A DNA stretch of 59,215 nt from Desulfomonile tiedjei (GTDB taxonomy: Bacteria; Desulfobacterota; Desulfomonilia; Desulfomonilales; Desulfomonilaceae), in the NCBI GenBank assembly GCA_016218715.1, contig JACRDG010000103.1, positions 1 through 59,215 on the forward strand, in the 5' to 3' direction. Under the pieces are notes generated by a model that saw only the letters and a program-made list of their open reading frames with translations, was not told the DNA's origin and searched no databases. The position numbers were made by a program, and so were the translations under genes. This document shows positions 3,752 to 57,268 of this stretch, one piece after another (the stretch's first letter is position 1; the number at the start of each line of letters is the position of its first letter).

Positions 3752-4546
3752 CTAACAACTATCGTCCCTGCGGCGCGAATCCGCAACCGGTGCACTCTCA
3801 TTGCGGGCATGTACGTGATCCAAGCTACCCACCAGTTGGTTGAAATATGCGGGCACTCTCGTTTCGAAGGTGATCTGGTTGCCGTTAAAGGGGTGTCTGA
3901 AGGAAATCGATTTGGCATGAAGTGCCAGGCGCTTGTGGGCCTTAGTCCCTTTTCCATACTTCCGGTCACCCACAACCGGGTGTCCGATATCGGCAAGATG
4001 TACCCGTATCTGGTGCTTCCTGCCCGTTAAGAGATCGACCTCCAGCAGAGCAAGGTCTTTCGTCTCTTTGAGCACTCGGTAAGCAGTATGGGACAGTTTT
4101 CCTTTAGTAGTGCCGGATGCAGAGTACACGCGGTGGCCTTTGTTCTCCACCAGGTATGTGGTAATAGTCTCCGACCTTTTTTCGCACTTGCCATGAACGA
4201 CGGCGAGATACTTCTTCTTCGTTTCGTTCCAATGGCCCTGCAAAAAGACCTTTGCCTCTTCACTTTTCGCGAAGATCAGTATTCCTGAAGTTTCCCTATC
4301 CAGTCGGTGAACGATGAAAATGCGATTCTTGGACTTGGAGCATCCCCTGCGGACATAATCTGTTAGGATGAAGTAAGCTGTCCGTTCTTTTTCTCTATCC
4401 GTACCCATGGTCAAGAGACCCGGCGGTTTATCCACTACAAGAATATCCCTGTCTTCGTGAACGATCACGAGGCCTTTCGGCAGAACTCTGGTGCTCGGTC
4501 TGGGACATCCTCTCATAGCGAACGCTCTGTCTGCTCTCGTCAGCAT
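3752..4546 (-). CDS. RluA-family pseudouridine synthase
   Basis: Isomerises specific uridines in rRNA or tRNA to pseudouridine in the cytoplasm. The signature HRLDRETSG occurs at residues 80-88, with Asp83 the catalytic aspartate of the RluA/RsuA superfamily. The later GRKHQIRVHLADIGHPVVGD stretch matches the conserved RluA motif around the RNA-binding arginine and the phosphate-contacting loop. There is no S4 RNA-binding domain, since the catalytic domain starts near residue 20, so it resembles the short RluA/RluC-like members rather than RluD. Length is 264 residues. The start ATG is at 4546; an in-frame ATG ten codons later is an alternative. It is followed in reverse order by the yaiI-like gene 46 bp upstream on the same strand, so the two may be co-transcribed. 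The target uridine is unknown. Confidence 0.9.
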   Translation of the reverse strand: MLTRADRAFAMRGCPRPSTRVLPKGLVIVHEDRDILVVDKPPGLLTMGTDREKERTAYFILTDYVRRGCSKSKNRIFIVHRLDRETSGILIFAKSEEAKVFLQGHWNETKKKYLAVVHGKCEKRSETITTYLVENKGHRVYSASGTTKGKLSHTAYRVLKETKDLALLEVDLLTGRKHQIRVHLADIGHPVVGDRKYGKGTKAHKRLALHAKSISFRHPFNGNQITFETRVPAYFNQLVGSLDHVHARNESAPVADSRRRDDSC

Positions 4547-7006: not shown

Positions 7007-7110
7007 GAAAGCCTCCGGACCGCAAATGTGCTTGGAATCGCACGGGATGAGTCTGAGATCCTCTCGTTTCGAGGCCCAGTTTCACCATGATACGCCAACT
7101 ACCCCGAAAA

Positions 7111-7303
7111 CCGGAATTATGCGGCGGTCTTGCCTTTCCGGGGGTCCGGGCGCGACAACCACGCGAGAAGTGGTTGTCCTGGCCCCGCGAGCTTTCCCGT
7201 GTGGTACTGGGCAAGGCAAGACAGAGGCATAACCGGCGTATAGTTGTCAAGAAGCCTCAGAGATATTGTTTCTGAGCGTACCGCACCAACAGAAGTCGAT
7301 CAA
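7111..7303 (-). promoter_or_regulatory. Leader element copy E (promoter plus conserved 5' leader), upstream of acyl-CoA synthetase gene
   Basis: On the minus strand it starts with TTGATC (7303-7298), a 17-bp spacer and TACGCT (7280-7275), followed by CAGAAACA. It ends in GGCAAGACCGC plus CGCATAATTCCGG (7134-7111). The -35-to-block distance is 169 bp, against 170, 172 and 168 bp in the copies at 7621, 53449 and 57235. The middle GGTTATGCCTCTGTC (about 7213-7199) matches copy C (GGTTTTGCCTCTGTC). It also contains a 9-bp hairpin (7154-7178) not seen in the others. By family comparison it is a promoter with a structured leader; function is unknown. Confidence 0.6.
7154..7178. repeat. 9-bp perfect inverted repeat inside leader E
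   Basis: GACAACCAC (7154-7162) and GTGGTTGTC (7170-7178) around the loop GCGAGAA. In the transcript of leader E this would be a stable hairpin. No T-run follows, so it is not a classical terminator. Confidence 0.6.
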
Positions 7304-7620
7304 GCAAAATGATGCCCGTGATCCCCTGCCCGTGGCTTCTGGCACTTTGGGCCGAGGCAGCCAAAGATGAGGGCGTGGCCGGACAAAATTGCGAGGCAGG
7401 CAGAACGCTCGCTGAGAAGGTATCGCGCGTGCTCGAGATGGCGCCAGTGCTTCAGCGCCTGAGGATCGAGGCTTCCTTTTACATCCGGGGGGTTTTCTCC
7501 TTTCTCGGACCGTAGAACTCTCCACATAGAACGGAAGCGGCAAGATCATGGAGCTTCAGCATTCCTGTTGGCTCGACACTGCCGGGCTGTGTTCGGCTGA
7601 GGTCCACCGAGAACTCGTAC
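7304..7620. other. Region between two back-to-back leader elements
   Basis: This 317-bp stretch lies between the -35 boxes of the leftward leader E and the rightward leader A. I recognise no gene. A leftward frame reading through DPQALKHWRHLEHARYLL could be a relic but matches nothing I know. It may hold sites shared by the two divergent promoters. Confidence 0.35.
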
Positions 7621-7812
7621 TTGACCGGGAGCGTTCGGTGAGGTACGCTCAGGAACAGGATAACACAGGCTTTTTCAGCAATGTGACGAAGGTTGTGCCT
7701 GCGTCGGTGCATGTGGGAGACATACGGGGGCCTTTTCGGACTCAAAGCAACCATGCCGCAACCGGGCACCGGGTTCAGAACTCCAGAAATGGCAAGATCA
7801 CGGAATACTTCC
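7621..7812 (+). promoter_or_regulatory. Leader element copy A, upstream of universal stress protein gene
   Basis: TTGACC (7621-7626), 17-bp spacer ending GTGAGG, TACGCT (7644-7649), then CAGGAACAGGATAA, GGCTTTTTCAGCAATGTG (7669-7686) and ATACGGGGGCCTTTTCGGAC. It ends in the block GGCAAGATC..GGAATACTTCC (7791-7812), 170 bp after the -35. GACGAAGG (7685-7692) can pair with CCTGCGTC (7698-7705) with one mismatch. The stretch AGGCTTTTTCAGCAATGTG is nearly identical to copy F (AGGCTGTTTCGGCAATGTG). The usp start codon at 7905 gives a leader of about 255 nt. Confidence 0.6.
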
Positions 7813-7904
7813 ATGTTTGATTCTCCGTCAACGGCGACCTCGCGACGCGCAGCATTGCCGATAATCGGGATACGTCGCGGCTTCTGGGCAGGAGGGAACG
7901 AGCC

Positions 7905-8357
7905 ATGTACAAGAGCATACTAGTCCCTTTGGACGGCTCCAAGAATGACGAGGTTGTGCTGGCGCACGTCAAGACGTTAGCAAAACAATGGGGGGCCGGT
8001 GTGAAACTGATCCTGTTGCATCGGCTTGCGCCGGCGGACGACCCCTTCGAGAAGAACGTGCAGATGGAAGACGGCTCATCCGGGTGGAGAGCCAAACGAA
8101 AAGCCGAGACCTACTTGCCACATCTGGAGCACATGGTGGCGCAGGAGGGGATCAAGGTACTCGCGGAATTTCTTGTGGTGGAAGAACCAGAGGCAGACGC
8201 CATCGTGCGGTACGCTGAAGACAACAACTGCGATCTCATCGTTCTCGCCAATCGAGAGCGATCGCCGATCGGCAGGTTCTTCTTCGGGAACATTGAAGAG
8301 AAAGTGCGGCGAAGGTCTACCCTGCCGGTGCTGTTCGTCTCCGTGCGTCAATCATAA
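7905..8357 (+). CDS. Universal stress protein (UspA family)
   Basis: A 150-residue single-domain Usp protein of the cytoplasm. It begins MYKSILVPLDGS, the family's first strand with the ATP-contacting Asp, and ends with the C-terminal VLFVSVRQS strand. The nucleotide loop reads NRERSPIGRFFFGNIEEKV. ATP-binding members usually have G-x2-G-x9-G-S/T here, and two of those glycines are replaced (Arg-Glu-Arg-Ser), so ATP binding is uncertain. The ATG at 7905 follows an AGGAGGGAACGAGCC ribosome-binding site. It is followed 12 bp later by a ferritin-like gene, likely the same transcript, which suggests a stress or iron/oxygen-related unit. Expression probably starts in the leader element at 7621. 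Confidence 0.93.
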   Translation: MYKSILVPLDGSKNDEVVLAHVKTLAKQWGAGVKLILLHRLAPADDPFEKNVQMEDGSSGWRAKRKAETYLPHLEHMVAQEGIKVLAEFLVVEEPEADAIVRYAEDNNCDLIVLANRERSPIGRFFFGNIEEKVRRRSTLPVLFVSVRQS

Positions 8358-10337: not shown

Positions 10338-10424
10338 ACTTAACATCGTACGAATGTTGAGGTTTGCATCGTAGCATGTTCGCACTTGTGGACCTCCTGG
10401 TCTAACAAAACCACTATTGCTGGT

Positions 10425-10577
10425 ACCAATGTGCGATTCAATAAGTAATATTGCTGAAGGGCGCTCCTGGGGGGTCTCCGGAGCGCAGTCAGGCTGTGCC
10501 GTTCGTAGCGGAGGAGACCTCCCAGGAAAAGCCCAGAGTAGAGTCCTCGGATGCTACAAATTGAACTGCACATTGGT
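10425..10577. mobile_element. MITE-like element, copy R1
   Basis: Terminal inverted repeats ACCAATGTGC (10425-10434) and GCACATTGGT (10568-10577), with weaker pairing continuing inward (TTCAAT). The inside is GGGCGCTCCTGGGGGG through GGAGACCTCCCAGG, almost identical to copy R2 at 41799 read on the opposite strand. The inner arms CCTGGGGGGTCTCC and GGAGACCTCCCAGG form a 14-bp stem with one G-T wobble. There is no transposase frame, as expected for a miniature element. It fills most of the gap between the EamA gene and the LssY_C gene. Confidence 0.7.
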
Positions 10578-41798: not shown

Positions 41799-41954
41799 AT
41801 ACCAATTCGCTTTTAAACAAGTAATGTTCGAGAGAGCGCCAAGGGCTTTTCCTGGGAGGTCTCCTCCGCTACGAACGGCACTGCCTGACTGCGCTCCGGA
41901 GACCTCCCAGGAGCGCCCATCGGCAGTACCATTTTTTGAATCGCGAATTGGTAT
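41799..41954. mobile_element. MITE-like element, copy R2 (best preserved)
   Basis: Perfect 12-bp terminal inverted repeats: ATACCAATTCGC (41799-41810) and GCGAATTGGTAT (41943-41954); the TA at each outer edge could be the duplicated target. Inside, CCTGGGAGGTCTCC (41851-41864) and GGAGACCTCCCAGG (41898-41911) form a perfect 14-bp stem around a 33-base middle. The interior is almost the same as copy R1 (reverse orientation) and the right part of R3. No coding frame is present. TA-flanked ends suggest mobilisation by an IS630/Tc1-like transposase, which is not in this window. Confidence 0.8.
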
Positions 41955-42056
41955 TAGCTATGCGGCGACGTGCCGTCAGTTCTCGGATGTGTGAGATTAC
42001 GCGACCGGCTCCTAGACTATGTATCGAGAGCAGGTGCCGGTGATCGAGAAGGGACG

Positions 42057-51643: not shown

Positions 51644-53083
51644 ATGAAAAACGCGCTCATTGATTTTGTCGGCAAGCTGAGGCAGGCCGGGATTTCGGTT
51701 TCTCAGGCTGAAACAATGGACGCGGCCTCATGCCTCCAGCGCTTGAACCTTGACGACCGGAGCCAGTTCAAGGACGCTCTGCGTTCAAGCCTTGTGAAAC
51801 GCAGTCGCGACATTCCCGTCTTCGAGGTGTTGTTCGACCTGTATTTTTCCGGCGGCCCCCTTGTGGGGACACCGGCTGATGGAACGGTCGGAGAGCACAT
51901 TGGCCAGGTGCACCGGATGCTCGCTGAGATAGAAGAACGACATAACGGGGAGCTCTCACCGGTCACCCGGATGGTGATGACGGGGAGCTTCGGTGAACTG
52001 ATGCGGCACCTGTTGGCAGCAAGCGGAGGCCTGGCCCTGAGACGAATGGACCTGGCACCGGTGCGCGGGCGGTTTTTCGTCAATGAGCTGCGGAGAATGA
52101 TAGATCCCGAGCGAGTCCGAACAGAGGCAGAGGCGGTGCTGTCCGAAATGGCGTACCGCGGAATGGACCGGGATGCGGTCCTGGAGTTCAGAGAATACGT
52201 CGCCCGGAATTTGGAACGCCTTGAAGAAGAGTTGGAAGAGCTGGTCCTCGAAGAAGTGGAAAAGAGCCGCTTCATGGCCCTGCGCCGTATCGAAGACGAG
52301 GAGATAGCAGAGCGGAATCTCTACCAGTTGACGGAACGAGACTTATCAGCCATGCGCCCTGCAGTGGAACGGTTGGCCCGTCGGTTGAAGGATCGGCTCA
52401 GTTTGCGGCTCAGGAGGGCAGACAGGGGACACATCGACATCAAGCGCACCTTGCGCGGCAATGTGGGATACGGCGGACCGTTGCCGGACCTACGTTTCAG
52501 GAACAAGCGGGCCGCGCGGCCTCAGGTTGCGGCCCTGTGCGATGTTTCTCGATCCGTCCGGGATTTCTCGCGGTTCATGCTGTTGTTCCTTTACACGTTG
52601 AAGGAAGTGATTTCCCGCATCCGGAGCTTCATCTTCGTAGGGGACCTGACGGAGGTGACATCAATATTCCGAGAGCACGATCTCAATGAGGCGGTATCAA
52701 AGGCCGCTGCCGGTCAGGGCTTGAGATACCCTTTCGGCACAGACTACGGCTCGTCGCTCGGTCAATTTGTAGAGGAGCACCTGGGGGAGGTCAATTCCAA
52801 AACAACGGTCATCATACTGGGAGATGCCCGCAACAACAACCTGCCTCCCCGAATTGAAGCGCTGGAGGCCGTGGCCGAACGTGCCCGCAAAGTGATCTGG
52901 ATCAATCCCGAACCGGTCGCCTTCTGGGGAACCGGGGACAGCGTCATGCCGCTCTATGAGCCTTACTGCACAACACTTGCCCAATGCAGCAACCTGGCCC
53001 AACTGTCGGACGCCATTGAAGAGAACCTGATCCCCTTACAATTTCACGATAAGAAACGTAGTACTCGTGGAGGGCGCTTCTGA
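51644..53083 (+). CDS. VWA-domain protein (CoxE-like), 3' end formed by a MITE
   Basis: About 479 residues. A charged helical N-terminal half (residues 90-260; long EELEELVLEEVEKSRF stretch) is followed by a CoxE-type VWA domain starting near ALCDVSRSVRDFSRF, whose D-x-S-x-S (DVSRS) is the metal-ion-dependent adhesion site; GDARNNN is a further conserved turn. It partners the MoxR ATPase. The last 14 codons (from Gln after IPL, ending STRGGRF) and the stop fall inside MITE copy R3, so the original C-terminus was replaced. The start is given as the ATG at 51644; an in-frame GTG three codons earlier is possible. Confidence 0.9.
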   Translation: MKNALIDFVGKLRQAGISVSQAETMDAASCLQRLNLDDRSQFKDALRSSLVKRSRDIPVFEVLFDLYFSGGPLVGTPADGTVGEHIGQVHRMLAEIEERHNGELSPVTRMVMTGSFGELMRHLLAASGGLALRRMDLAPVRGRFFVNELRRMIDPERVRTEAEAVLSEMAYRGMDRDAVLEFREYVARNLERLEEELEELVLEEVEKSRFMALRRIEDEEIAERNLYQLTERDLSAMRPAVERLARRLKDRLSLRLRRADRGHIDIKRTLRGNVGYGGPLPDLRFRNKRAARPQVAALCDVSRSVRDFSRFMLLFLYTLKEVISRIRSFIFVGDLTEVTSIFREHDLNEAVSKAAAGQGLRYPFGTDYGSSLGQFVEEHLGEVNSKTTVIILGDARNNNLPPRIEALEAVAERARKVIWINPEPVAFWGTGDSVMPLYEPYCTTLAQCSNLAQLSDAIEENLIPLQFHDKKRSTRGGRF

Positions 53084-53346
53084 GAGGTCTCCGGAGCTCA
53101 GTCAGGCAATAGTGGAGCGCTGCCGCTCCACTATCCTAGCGGCCGAAAGCCTGAAGCAAGCGTCATGATTCATAATCCTGCAAGGCCGGTCTCAGCGAGG
53201 CGATTATCGAAGGCTCATCGGCATTCAGCTTGCCTGGTGCCACGATTTTCAAAGAGCGGCACTATCTCCGTCCCTAGCGGAGGAGAGCTCTCAGGAAAAG
53301 CGCTTGGCAGGCTTTTCGAATGTTACCTCTTCAAAAGCGAAATGGC
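53037..53346. mobile_element. MITE-like element, copy R3 (enlarged, overlaps 3' end of VWA gene)
   Basis: The left end (TACAATTTCACGATAAG, 53037-53053) matches the TACCAATTCGCGATTCA end of R2. GGGCGCTTCTGAGAGGTCTCC matches its inner left arm. The right part (CTAGCGGAGGAGAGCTCTCAGG, 53274-53295, then TTCAAAAGCGAAATGG to 53345) matches the right half. About 150 bp are inserted in the middle, including an 11-bp hairpin ATAGTGGAGCG/CGCTCCACTAT (53109-53134). The stem keeps pairing by paired changes (GGGAG to GAGAG on one side, CTCCC to CTCTC on the other). It provides the stop codon of the VWA gene. Confidence 0.65.
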
Positions 53347-53448
53347 CTGAGTCAAGCCCGCGGCCCGGGACGATTCAAGGACGCTGTTTGCCGGGATCCA
53401 GCGATTTACCGGGTTGTCTTCGGGTAAAGGGTGCAGTGGAACAAACGG

Positions 53449-53644
53449 TTGACGGAGGGGTGGACGGTGAGGTATGCTCAAGTACAGGATAAGAGGAGTC
53501 TTTTCAGCAAAATGGAGGCGGTTTTGCCTCTGTCAGGTCTTGTGGGGGCCCCTTCTGGGGCTTCATCTGTCTCAGGGGGACACTGCCGAGACCGGATTCC
53601 GGGGCAAACGTCACCGAAATCGCAAGACCGCTGCATAATTCCGG
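53449..53644 (+). promoter_or_regulatory. Leader element copy C, upstream of nucleotide cyclase gene
   Basis: TTGACG (53449-53454), 18-bp spacer ending GTGAGG, TATGCT (53473-53478), then CAAGTACAGGATAA, GTCTTTTCAGCAAAATGG and GGTTTTGCCTCTGTC. It ends in the block GCAAGACCGC..GCATAATTCCGG (53622-53644), 172 bp after the -35. GAGGC-GGTTTT-GCCTC and GCCCC-TTCT-GGGGC can form hairpins in the transcript. The cyclase ATG at 53741 gives a leader of about 262 nt, close to that of copies A (255) and E (268). Confidence 0.6.
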
Positions 53645-53646
53645 TC

Positions 53647-53740: not shown

Positions 53741-55342
53741 ATGATCGATCAGAAGCATTTCACCACCAAGACTCTTGTGAGGTCAGTGGCTGCCATCAAT
53801 GTGCTCGGGAACTTGTTGGGAGTGGGACTGACCTTTATCTACTTTGGGGTACTCATGCCAAGGCTGCACCACGGGTCCCCAATGGGGCCTCTCGGAAGCA
53901 CGCTGGGTTTCCTTCTCGCAGTCGTGGTGTTTGTAATGGCTTTCAACACCAGGATTATTTGGCCGCTCATGCGCGAAGTGAAGCAAAGACTCGGTCAGGA
54001 ACACCAGGGCACTTTTCAGCATGAAGAGGTGGAGGACCTGAGACGGCTCGTTGGAAAGCTGATGAAGCTTCCTGTCAAGCTGGCAGGGACAACTTTGGCG
54101 GCCTGGGTCCTCGCAGCCATTGCCTGGCTAGCTTGGGCGCAGGTTGCCCCGAATCTGTATCCGTGGTCTCCGGAATTCTCTCACAGGTGTTCAGCGTGGA
54201 TGATTCTGGTCGCTGCTCCAATCACCATGCTCTGGATTCACTTTGCCCAGGAAAGGTGGCTTCGCTTGAAGATTCCCGAGCTGTTTCCTGCGGAGGCTTT
54301 GGACTCGGTTCCGCCGACGTTCAGGATCAATGTGTTGCCTCGCTTGCTCGTGGTATCTCTCGTGATAGGCTGCGTGCCCTTTGTGCTGGTGAGCCACCTG
54401 GCCTTGAGGCAGATCCACGATATCAGAGCAGGACAGCAATCGCTGGACAATTTCCTCATGTACATGCCTGACGTGATCTGGTTTCTGCTTGGGGTATTTG
54501 GCATCTTGGCAGCCGGCTTGGCCGTATTCTTGGCCAAAAGCGTATCGGAGCCGTTGCAGAGCTTCGAATCAGTCATGACCGTGGTCCGTAGGGGCAATCT
54601 GGATACTCAAGTCCCGGTGGTATCCAATGACGAGATCGGCCATATGGGAGAAGGATTCAATCGCATGGTCCGCGACCTGAAAGAAGCCGAGTCGATAAAA
54701 GACACTTTCGGGCGTTACCTCAGCAGGGAGATTGTTGATGAGATACTCAAGTCTCCTGGCGGCGTGGAGTTGAAGGGCGAATTGCGGGATATTTCAGTTC
54801 TGGTTGCTGACCTTCGAGATTTCACGCAAATGACTGAAGCCCTGGGGCCGCGCCAGGTCCTGCAGATTATCAACCGCTATCTGGAGACAATGACGGATAT
54901 CATAGTGGGCCATAGGGGCACCATCGACGAATTCACCGGAGACGGGATATTGGTCTTTTTCGGTGCGCCCCAGGCCCTCCCTGATCACTGCAAACGCTCA
55001 GTGCGTTGCGCCCTCGATATGCAACAAGCCATGGCAGGGCTCAACCTGCAGTTGAGCGAGCGTTCCCTCCCGGAACTCCGGATGGGTATCGGTATCAATT
55101 GCGGTCGATTGATTGTCGGAAATATCGGTTCGGAAAAGCGGAAGAAATATGGAGCACTGGGTAGCCCCATCAATCTCGCGTTTCGGGTCGAGGCTCAGAC
55201 TGCAGGCGGAGAAGTGCTCGTGTCACCGGAGGTCCATTCGCACCTCAATGGCCAACTTCTGGTGGATCAGGCAAGAGAGTCATACCTCAAGGGACTTGAC
55301 GACCCGATCACTCTGTACCGGGTGGTAGGATTGACCGGTTGA
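53741..55342 (+). CDS. Membrane class III adenylate/guanylate cyclase with HAMP domain
   Basis: About 533 residues. Several membrane segments (residues about 15-270), a HAMP linker (SVSEPLQSFESVMTVVRRGN, then DEIGHMGEGFNRM), and a class III cyclase domain from about residue 345. Metal-binding Asp357 (VADLRDFT) and Asp401 (FTGDG), and the transition-state Asn478 and Arg482 (INLAFR) are present, so it should be active. The two base-selecting positions, Lys and Asp in adenylyl cyclases, are Glu397 and Ser475, closer to the Glu/Cys pair of guanylyl cyclases, so the product may not be cAMP. The frame is open from 53657, but the ATG at 53741 with an AGAGG site starts the conserved part. It lies behind leader element C. 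Confidence 0.9.
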   Translation: MIDQKHFTTKTLVRSVAAINVLGNLLGVGLTFIYFGVLMPRLHHGSPMGPLGSTLGFLLAVVVFVMAFNTRIIWPLMREVKQRLGQEHQGTFQHEEVEDLRRLVGKLMKLPVKLAGTTLAAWVLAAIAWLAWAQVAPNLYPWSPEFSHRCSAWMILVAAPITMLWIHFAQERWLRLKIPELFPAEALDSVPPTFRINVLPRLLVVSLVIGCVPFVLVSHLALRQIHDIRAGQQSLDNFLMYMPDVIWFLLGVFGILAAGLAVFLAKSVSEPLQSFESVMTVVRRGNLDTQVPVVSNDEIGHMGEGFNRMVRDLKEAESIKDTFGRYLSREIVDEILKSPGGVELKGELRDISVLVADLRDFTQMTEALGPRQVLQIINRYLETMTDIIVGHRGTIDEFTGDGILVFFGAPQALPDHCKRSVRCALDMQQAMAGLNLQLSERSLPELRMGIGINCGRLIVGNIGSEKRKKYGALGSPINLAFRVEAQTAGGEVLVSPEVHSHLNGQLLVDQARESYLKGLDDPITLYRVVGLTG

Positions 55343-55763: not shown

Positions 55764-56984
55764 TCAGGGGTTCCTGTTCACCTTCTTCAGTTCCTCGGGT
55801 GTACGGCAGATCTGCTCACCCTGTATGGACTGGATGTTCGTGAGCACTGCGAAACCGTATTTCTCGCTCGGCGCCGTCTCACCCCAAACCACGTCTTCCA
55901 CCACCTGATGGTCCTCGGGCCGCATGACCTTCCACCCCTCCGGGGTCAGCCAGGCCAGGGGCTCGCGTTCAACCGCCTTCACGAGCGCGTCGGGATCGGT
56001 CGTCCCCGCACGCACCAGGGCAGCCTTGATGAAGTGAACGCCCGCGTAGGTTTCCTCGGTCATATAGTCCGGATACTCTTTGTACTTCTCGTAGTATTTC
56101 TTTACGAAATCCCGGTTTTCAACAGAGTCGGGCGTGGTGAAAAAATACCGGGATGACATGTAGAGGCCTGAAGGGGTCTCCTTGCCCAGTGGGACGACGG
56201 TTTCCAGAGCTGCACCCACGGGAAACGCGAATTTGATTTCATCGAAGAGCTTGGTTTCCTTGGCCTGCCGGATGAAATTCACGGCGTCCTGGCCCCAAAG
56301 CGGGCACCATACTGCCTCAGGCTTGGCTTTGCGGATCTGCTCTATGTGTTCCGAAAAGTCCTTGGCCATGAGCTTGGGAAACGTCTCGCCGAGAATTTCC
56401 ACGTCCGGCTTCAGCTCTTTCAGTTTCTCTCTGAACAAGCGCCAGGATTCGTGGCCGTAGTTGTAGTCCGGCCCGATGCACATCCATTTCTTGTACGGTT
56501 TTGTGGCCATGTAGTACGCGCCTGACCGGGAGTGCATCATGACGTTACTGAGCGTACTGAAAACATAGGGATTGAACTTGGCTCCCGTCAGGGCATCCGT
56601 GGCCGCCTGAGTCACAATGAGGATTTTCTTGTGCTTTCGAGCGACCTCTGAGAGAGACATGGCGACACCGCTGGAAGTGGGGCCCATGAGAAAATCCACC
56701 TTGTCCTCGCCGATGAATTTTTCGGCAAGCTCAGTTGCGATCTCGGGCTTCAACTTCGTGTCTCCGAAAGACGCGGACAGGTTTCTCCCCAGCACTCCAC
56801 CTGCGGCATTGATTTCTTCCACAGCCATTTCCACAGCCCGCTGACCGTTGATTCCATAGCCTCCCAGAGGGCCGGAACTGATAAACATAACGCCCAGTTT
56901 GATCGGTTTTTCCTCAGCAGACACTGCACTCAAGAATGCAATCGCCAGGAATACGCTCAGGGGAACAAGGAAAAGCCTTTTCAT
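55764..56984 (-). CDS. ABC transporter substrate-binding protein, LivK-like (branched-chain amino acid/amide family)
   Basis: Periplasmic binding protein of about 406 residues with a signal peptide (MKRLFLVPLSVFLAIAFLSA, cleavage near VSAEE). The mature part begins KPIKLGVMFISSGPLGGYG, then VEEINAAGGVLGR, both hallmarks of the Peripla_BP_6/LivJ-K fold, followed by two Rossmann-like lobes. In such anaerobes these proteins may bind amino acids, aromatic acids, amides or other carboxylates; the ligand is unknown. The frame opens at 57395, but the ATG at 56984 has GGGAGG nine bases upstream and starts the signal peptide. It has its own promoter in leader element F. No permease or ATPase genes are adjacent. 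Confidence 0.93.
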   Translation of the reverse strand: MKRLFLVPLSVFLAIAFLSAVSAEEKPIKLGVMFISSGPLGGYGINGQRAVEMAVEEINAAGGVLGRNLSASFGDTKLKPEIATELAEKFIGEDKVDFLMGPTSSGVAMSLSEVARKHKKILIVTQAATDALTGAKFNPYVFSTLSNVMMHSRSGAYYMATKPYKKWMCIGPDYNYGHESWRLFREKLKELKPDVEILGETFPKLMAKDFSEHIEQIRKAKPEAVWCPLWGQDAVNFIRQAKETKLFDEIKFAFPVGAALETVVPLGKETPSGLYMSSRYFFTTPDSVENRDFVKKYYEKYKEYPDYMTEETYAGVHFIKAALVRAGTTDPDALVKAVEREPLAWLTPEGWKVMRPEDHQVVEDVVWGETAPSEKYGFAVLTNIQSIQGEQICRTPEELKKVNRNP

Positions 56985-57041: not shown

Positions 57042-57235
57042 GACGGGAATCATACCGCGGTCTCGCCATCTCACGGAGCTTCCGGCCGATACCCTGGTGG
57101 GGCACCGGACCTTGTCGTCGAAGAGACCCCCGTATTTCCCCACTTGGCTGCAGAAACGATCAACAACAGCCACATTGCCGAAACAGCCTCTTGCTTTCCG
57201 GTTCCAAGAATGCTGGAGCACCGATTCCAACTCAA
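57042..57235 (-). promoter_or_regulatory. Leader element copy F, upstream of a binding-protein gene
   Basis: Minus strand: TTGAGT (57235-57230), 17-bp spacer, CATTCT (57212-57207) at the -10 place. Then come TGGAACCGGAAAGCAAG, GGCTGTTTCGGCAATGTGG and ATACGGGGGTCTCTTCGAC, which align without gaps to copy A for the first part. The end block GGCGAGACCGCGGTATGATT (57067-57048) matches the family block, 168 bp after the -35. The -10 here is poor, so promoter strength is doubtful, but the homology of the rest is clear. The binding-protein ATG at 56984 lies 57 bp after the block. Confidence 0.6.
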
Positions 57236-57268
57236 GTCGAACGTTCTTGGTAAACGCGACATTCAACG

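What the first reader, a model, noticed from the sequence alone, without database searches (positions are those of the whole stretch)
7621..7812. Undescribed ~195-bp leader/promoter element in four gene-oriented copies
Copies A (7621-7812, +), E (7303-7111, -), C (53449-53644, +) and F (57235-57042, -) share three things. First, a TTGA-type -35 and a -10 box, 17, 17, 18 and 17 bp apart. Second, similar early transcribed parts (for example AGGCTTTTTCAGCAATGTG in A, AGGCTGTTTCGGCAATGTG in F; GGTTTTGCCTCTGTC in C, GGTTATGCCTCTGTC in E). Third, a 3' block near GGCAAGACCGC..CATAATTCC placed 170, 169, 172 and 168 bp after the -35. All four point at the next gene (universal stress protein, acyl-CoA synthetase alpha, nucleotide cyclase, binding protein), and three have leaders of 255-268 nt from -10 to start codon. 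Fixed length with a drifting middle suggests an RNA leader (riboswitch-like or sRNA-controlled) or a mobile intergenic repeat that carries a promoter. The alignment was made by eye.
Basis: partly seen in the sequence, partly recalled or inferred. Interest (0 to 1): 0.78.

Follow-up and report, generated by a model that had tools for sequence, protein, structure and literature searches.

The report
Insertion-sequence ends reused as gene promoters
The repeated ~195-bp element is the leftover right-hand end of a bacterial jumping gene (IS1380 family) that carries a promoter; dozens of such leftovers sit in front of ordinary genes in this genome, pointing at them, and probably switch them on.

Summary
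The four copies are real and belong to a family with 53 matches at E<1e-3 in this 5.55-Mb genome. Matches occur in 18 of 18 genomes searched of its bacterial family and in 0 of 23 of another family of the class. It is not an RNA leader: no base pairs in RNAalifold (28 copies), no covarying helix (101 copies). It is the non-coding tail of an IS1380-family insertion sequence, from transposase stop codon to right inverted repeat, with an outward sigma70-type promoter, TTGAC-N17/18-TAnnnT. One intact IS (1620 bp) remains in this genome; 27 of 105 copies (14 genomes) keep transposase remnants. Of 101 copies with a downstream gene in view, 99 read into its start (chance about 0.6). A model blind to the promoter found 44 copies; 35 keep all key promoter bases, against 0.4% at random places. 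Without transposase remnants the promoter stays while the IS end decays. One insertion is shared by two genera at the same junction. Best reading: IS-borne mobile promoters, many taken over by the host. Promoter activity is untested. Outward promoters on IS1380 elements are known; such a retained family-wide set was not found in my searches.

The parts
7590..7814 (+). Copy A: right end of an IS1380-family IS (promoter, leader, decayed right inverted repeat), 91 bp before the universal stress protein gene 7905-8357
   Evidence: R1 144.8 bits; inverted repeat 19/26; gene PF00582
7532..7597 (+). Remnant of the IS1380 transposase C-terminus (..HGASAFLLARHCRAVFG*) directly upstream of copy A
   Evidence: tblastn residues 424-445, 68% identity, E=0.012 for the window; DNA match of the whole IS from 7530, E=9e-21
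7621..7649 (+). Copy A promoter: -35 TTGACC 7621-7626, -10 TACGCT 7644-7649, spacer 17
7108..7330 (-). Copy E: right end; -35 TTGATC 7303-7298, -10 TACGCT 7280-7275, inverted repeat 7136-7111 (25/26); 101 bp before the CoA-binding/ligase gene 7006-5585
53417..53646 (+). Copy C: right end; -35 TTGACG 53449-53454, -10 TATGCT 53473-53478, inverted repeat 53619-53644 (24/26); 94 bp before the HAMP-nucleotide cyclase gene 53741-55342
57043..57245 (-). Copy F: right end with decayed promoter, inverted repeat 57069-57044 (21/26); about 58 bp before the periplasmic binding protein gene (ATG at 56984, read from the sequence)
   Evidence: apparent same insertion in genome G001, L168
23011..23202 (+). 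Degenerate fifth copy, not facing a gene start
   Evidence: R1 36 bits, E=1.2e-8; inverted repeat 12/26; next gene on the opposite strand

Best explanation
The element is the right end (the ~220-nt tail from transposase stop codon to terminal inverted repeat) of an IS1380-family insertion sequence found in this bacterial family (probably Desulfomonilaceae). The tail holds a complete outward sigma70-type promoter that begins about 20 nt after the transposase stop. Copies transposed next to genes, most lost their left end and transposase, and those that supply a transcript to the gene downstream were kept. Transcription should start near element position 67, run about 160 nt through the old IS tail and across the inverted repeat, and reach the start codon a median 71 nt further on. 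Shown by sequence: the IS origin, the orientation, retention of the promoter boxes, a shared old insertion. Inferred: that the promoter is active and that selection for expression keeps it.
For: Origin: an intact transposase (NF033539 IS1380, 358.8 bits, cut-off 180; PF13701, 413 bits) ends where an element copy begins, G000:C41. 27 of 105 copies keep same-strand transposase remnants; 1 of 105 has one on the other strand. 9 of 105 also have a left inverted repeat (322-1620 bp in all), one of them flanked by TGTAC on both sides. Three IS1380 copies of other deltaproteobacterial records have a homologous right repeat at nearly the same tail length. Promoter role: 99 of 101 copies with a gene in view read into it (p=2e-16 even at a chance rate of 0.65). 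Promoterless model R2: 44 copies at E<1e-3, 35 with all 8 key promoter bases and 38 with at least 7, against 0.4% and 2.3% at 4000 random places. Promoter (at least 4 of TTGAC, all of TA...T) kept in 90% of 78 copies without transposase remnant and in 81% of 27 with one, while the inverted repeat (>=18/26) falls from 96% to 72%. Cytochrome-oxidase subunit gene: same insertion junction in G008 (genus g9) and in G011, G014, G017 (genus g5). More right than left ends from searches with the same IS copy: 16 against 7 hits at E<1e-3.
Against: No transcript data. The -10 box (TACGCT) is a weak match to TATAAT. The leader and inverted repeat also stay fairly conserved, which a bare promoter would not need. 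Copies with transposase remnants are as gene-oriented as the others (24 of 25 against 75 of 76), so part of the bias could be insertion preference. The genome's one intact IS does not face a gene. Only 1 of 9 two-ended copies has a perfect target duplication. The copies were first gathered with a model that includes the promoter, and R2 was trained on them. At least 2 of the 16 right-end hits match only transposase coding sequence.
Confidence: 0.85

Rival explanations
1. Plain IS debris: right ends of a once active IS, conserved only because they are fairly young or because transposition constrained them; orientation reflects where this IS likes to insert.
For: Transposase remnants at all stages of decay; the inverted repeat is still recognisable in most copies; remnant-bearing copies show the same orientation bias.
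Against: An insertion shared by two genera is old; the promoter does not decay while the IS end does; right ends outnumber left ends; the intact IS is not gene-oriented.
Confidence: 0.2
2. Host regulatory DNA (for example sigma54 promoter plus enhancer, or a two-site operator) later captured by the IS.
For: The 3' block TGGCAAGACCGCnGCATAAT fits sigma54 -24/-12 spacing (consensus recalled); GACGACGGTTTTGCC is an inverted copy of GGCAAGACCGC about 100 bp away.
Against: The 3' block is the IS inverted repeat, with homologues in IS1380 copies of other bacteria; the GG and GC bases are not its most conserved ones; target functions are mixed.
Confidence: 0.04
3. Structured RNA leader (riboswitch or sRNA target).
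For: Constant length, position in the 5' leader, one 10-bp complementary pair of conserved blocks.
Against: 0 consensus pairs; no covarying helix in 101 copies; no Rfam match in the window; the length is IS anatomy.
Confidence: 0.03

Closest known systems
ISEcp1 and ISPme1 (IS1380 family) with outward promoters (PMC9330008, passages seen)
   Same: Same IS family by transposase model; outward promoter in the IS serving the adjacent gene; 5-bp target duplication reported for ISEcp1 (PMC2887853, passages) and listed for IS1247 of the same family (PMC3281130, table passage)
   Different: There, IS copies drive genes mobilised next to them; here mostly right ends without detectable transposase, tens per genome, at least one insertion shared between genera
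Mobile promoters / promoter propagation (Matus-Garcia 2012, van Passel 2014; seen only as references in PMC9208149; the papers themselves are not held)
   Same: Dispersed homologous promoter sequences spread by mobile elements
   Different: Here the carrier IS, its ends and its decay series are identified
Internal-deletion derivatives of IS (MITE-like)
   Same: 7 two-ended copies of 322-889 bp have lost part or nearly all of the transposase gene
   Different: No left end was recognised in 96 of 105 copies

Membership tests
IS1380 family insertion sequence | IS1380 DDE transposase | tested here: met
   NF033539 358.8 bits against cut-off 180; PF13701 413 bits; the intact ORF adjoins an element copy
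IS1380 family insertion sequence | Terminal inverted repeats at both ends | tested here: met
   Left CCGGATTATTCGGCGGGT and right (complement) CCGGAATTATGCGGCGGT in 9 of 105 copies, the intact IS among them; no left repeat recognised in the other 96
IS1380 family insertion sequence | Length about 1.7 kb (IS1247: 1672 bp) | tested here: met
   1620 bp in the intact copy, 1618 bp in a second, broken one
IS1380 family insertion sequence | 5-bp target duplication | tested here: inconclusive
   TGTAC/TGTAC in 1 of 9 two-ended copies; the other 8 show no perfect one
IS-borne outward promoter | Complete -35/-10 inside the IS reading outward | tested here: met
   Sequence only: 35 of 44 copies with all key bases; present in the tail of the intact IS
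IS-borne outward promoter | Measured transcription of the neighbour gene | not testable with these tools
   No expression data available
Riboswitch / structured RNA leader | Covarying conserved stems | tested here: not met
   0 pairs; no covarying helix
sigma54 promoter | GG(-24)/GC(-12) as the most conserved bases, TTGC at -12 (recalled) | tested here: not met
   Spacing fits but TT at -15/-14 is absent and GG is not the most conserved position; the block is the IS terminal repeat

The most novel reading that the evidence does not exclude
One IS1380 lineage rewired its host family: it seeded tens of related promoters and ~160-nt leaders (over forty in this genome) in front of unrelated genes (oxidase, globin, stress protein, cyclase, transporters, sensors). 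The conserved leader and inverted repeats let these genes be controlled together, for example by transposase or a host protein that still binds the old IS sites, so that the relics form a regulon.
Probability: 0.15. Interest if true: 0.85.

Novelty: new variant of a known kind. Interest (0 to 1): 0.5.

Why it matters
The IS-borne promoters in the review I saw are ones that activate resistance genes. Here a whole bacterial family seems to have kept tens of IS right ends as chromosomal promoters, with intermediates from intact IS to bare promoter in one genome. That makes promoter birth by transposition, its survival time and which IS parts selection keeps measurable. It also warns that a conserved, gene-oriented, fixed-length leader need not be a riboswitch.

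Tried and rejected
RNA structure: RNAalifold on 28 copies gave 0 pairs; a covariation scan of 101 copies found no helix; Rfam gave 0 matches in the window. Sigma54 promoter: first suggested by TGGCA..GC spacing (note), dropped after the conservation profile and the IS homologues. A DNA-looping operator pair (inverted GGCAARACCG blocks about 105 bp apart) was considered; the blocks are now read as the IS inverted repeat and a subterminal copy, function untested. A conserved element before a cation ATPase in several genomes was my misreading of protein lengths (note); the protein comparison did not support it. A shared insertion before the radical-SAM gene in three genomes was not supported by the alignment. 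The cox copy of the window's own genome (L107) ends about 10 bp away from the other four and is not closest to them, so it may be a separate insertion. Orientation counts depend on the gene-calling threshold: 42 of 44 in the own genome with the looser one, 38 of 41 with the stricter one. Three weak matches outside the family among 297 phylum genomes (20-22 bits) and one of 16 bits in G329 were not followed. Literature: searches for IS1380/promoter/right end, Desulfomonile/insertion sequence, ISEcp1/promoter/IS1380 family, mobile promoters, putative mobile promoters (none), domesticated promoter/exaptation, ISPme1/transposable module and ISEcp1/5-bp/IRR listed nothing that describes this family; I saw listings only, except the passages named elsewhere, and most subscription papers are not held.

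Full report
WHAT WAS CLAIMED AND WHETHER IT IS THERE. The four copies align over about 195 bp from the TTGA box to the 3' block. Searching the window's own genome (G000, 5.55 Mb, 124 contigs; the window is contig C64) with copies C, A and F gave 18, 22 and 3 matches at E<=1, queries included. Iterated profile search over the fetched loci joined all four copies and 25 others. A sequence-only covariance model, R1 (28 copies, 232 positions), found 69 matches at E<=1 in the genome, 53 of them at E<1e-3 and 42 at 50 bits or more (150 of 1075 first-look candidates were scored, so these are lower bounds). All 18 genomes searched of the same family, the own one included, have matches at E<=0.01; none of 23 from the other family searched in the class does. 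In a sample of 297 genomes of the phylum 5 matched at E<=0.001: the own genome, one of its family, and three weak ones of 20-22 bits (only 7 candidates per genome were scored, so this was a coarse look).

NOT AN RNA. RNAalifold predicted no pairs on 28 copies. In 101 copies (mean identity 53.5%) the best covarying column pairs form no helix. The one long complementarity, CGGTTTTGCC with GGCAAGACCG, scores -5 to 11 where the best column pairs reach 36, and its two sides change independently.

WHAT IT IS. Upstream of the -35 box many copies share more sequence, which in the best copies is the end of an open reading frame..YHGRRWQVHVASAFPLARYYRAVFG-stop, about 20 bp before TTGAC. The intact frame (G000:C41:27617-28951, 445 aa) is an IS1380-family transposase: NCBIfam NF033539 358.8 bits against a cut-off of 180, Pfam PF13701 413 bits. 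Fragments of it lie before other copies in G000, G006, G012 and others (9 of 21 genomes with a match at E<=1e-5). Window copy A keeps the last 22 codons (68% identity). Of 105 copies of 40 bits or more (45 own, 60 from 13 relatives), 27 have a same-strand transposase remnant within 1.5 kb upstream at E<0.01 (11 of the 45 own ones); 1 of 105 has one on the opposite strand. Nine of 105 have a left inverted repeat (at least 17 of 23; 2 of 395 random stretches reach that), giving elements of 322 to 1620 bp. One, 411 bp long, has TGTAC on both sides; the other eight show no perfect duplication. IS1247 of the same family is listed with 1672 bp and 5-bp duplications (PMC3281130 passage), ISEcp1 with 5-bp duplications (PMC2887853 passages). 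From the first base of the transposase stop to the IS end it is 219-221 nt in four copies of this IS and 212-223 nt in three IS1380 copies of other deltaproteobacterial records (L233, L234, L236), whose right repeats are homologous. So the constant length is IS anatomy. The TTGA box lies 24-25 nt after the start of the stop codon in L100, L231, L240 and L092, and no TTGA occurs in the first 45 nt of those three others; a fourth, L247, has no promoter-like match there either, but the automatic scan missed its repeat. The four genomes of L233, L234, L236 and L247, whose family is not told, give R1 no match at E<=0.01 in three and one of 16 bits in the fourth. The promoter thus seems special to the IS of this bacterial family.

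THE PROMOTER AND ITS KEEPING. In the profile of 110 aligned copies the best conserved bases are TTGAC and the TA...T of the -10 box, the pattern of a sigma70 promoter, together with the two outer ends of the model, where local alignment inflates conservation. To avoid circularity I built model R2 from the leader and right repeat only (60 of 79 eligible copies). It found 51 matches at E<=1, 44 at E<1e-3, and R1 had found all 44. Of these 44, 35 have all eight key promoter bases and 38 at least seven; random places give 0.4% and 2.3%. Caveat: the R2 training copies came from R1. In the 105 copies, 90% of 78 without transposase remnant and 81% of 27 with one keep the promoter, while the right repeat (>=18/26) falls from 96% to 72% and the subterminal block (>=15/21) from 93% to 67%; random places give 0.8%, 0.3% and 0.2%. 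Thus the IS parts decay and the promoter does not.

ORIENTATION AND TARGETS. Of 105 copies, 99 point at the start of the next gene, 2 do not, 4 have no gene in view; in the own genome 42, 2 and 1. The chance rate from gene arrangement is 0.57-0.61; at 0.65 the probabilities are 2e-6 (own) and 2e-16 (all). Copies are not fully independent, since some are orthologous. With stricter gene calls the own genome gives 38 same, 3 opposite, 1 none; upstream neighbours are 26 same, 14 opposite, 2 none. The intact IS is one of the two exceptions. The median distance from element end to start codon is 71 bp, with 69 of 99 between 0 and 200; nine negative distances probably reflect gene starts called too far upstream, as for copy F. 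Pfam on 38 of 41 downstream proteins of the own genome found a globin, nucleotide cyclase, Usp, radical SAM, ferric reductase-like, ZnuA, cation ATPase, Na+/H+ antiporter, response regulators, a PAS sensor kinase, periplasmic binding proteins, enoyl-CoA hydratase, MaoC, TPP enzyme and others; 12 of 38 had no match. There is no single pathway.

AGE. The copy before a cytochrome-oxidase subunit gene (named by my reading of its sequence; Pfam gave no match for the own-genome fragment) has the same junction in G008 (genus g9) and in G011, G014 and G017 (genus g5), with gene identities of 76-93%. Window copy F has a counterpart at the same distance before the orthologous binding protein in G001 (85% identity), and copy A a weaker one in G008 (Usp, 71%).

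MECHANISM. Shown by sequence: IS origin, promoter-like boxes, orientation, differential decay, a shared old insertion. Inferred: transcription from the boxes through the old IS tail into the gene, and selection for that expression. Left ends are rarer than right ends in searches from the same IS copy (7 against 16 hits at E<1e-3), which fits loss of everything but the promoter end. This is a rough figure: the two queries differ in content, and at least two of the 16 match only transposase coding sequence. Insertion preference remains possible, because copies with transposase remnants are also gene-oriented (24 of 25).

KNOWN AND NEW. Outward promoters on IS1380 elements are established (ISEcp1, ISPme1; PMC9330008 passages), and IS as mobile promoters is an accepted idea (PMC9208149 passages). 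That dozens of right ends are retained in front of chromosomal genes across a bacterial family was not found in the searches made.

Noticed in passing
window 10416-10534 (+), 41843-41961 (-), partial at 53037-53107 and 53268-53308: A second dispersed repeat, about 100-119 bp, with 40 matches at E<1e-26 and 84-100% identity in the own genome (40 of 76 first-look candidates scored); looks like a recently active REP/MITE-type element; parts of it also lie just upstream of copy C.
   Followed up: partly
G000 contigs C12, C15, C93, C41: Several right-end copies lie on the same contig, some within a few kb of each other and mostly before different genes.
   Followed up: no
L114:3308-5176 and L116:3305-5344: Two 46%-identical proteins that seem to start with a signal peptide and have no Pfam match each have their own copy upstream.
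   Followed up: no
L234, L236, L247 (IS1380 copies of other deltaproteobacterial records): Their tails share a TTTGTGCTAT sequence in the middle, possibly a different outward promoter.
   Followed up: no
window 7331-7589: Copies E and A stand back to back, about 260 bp apart, both reading outward into divergent genes.
   Followed up: no
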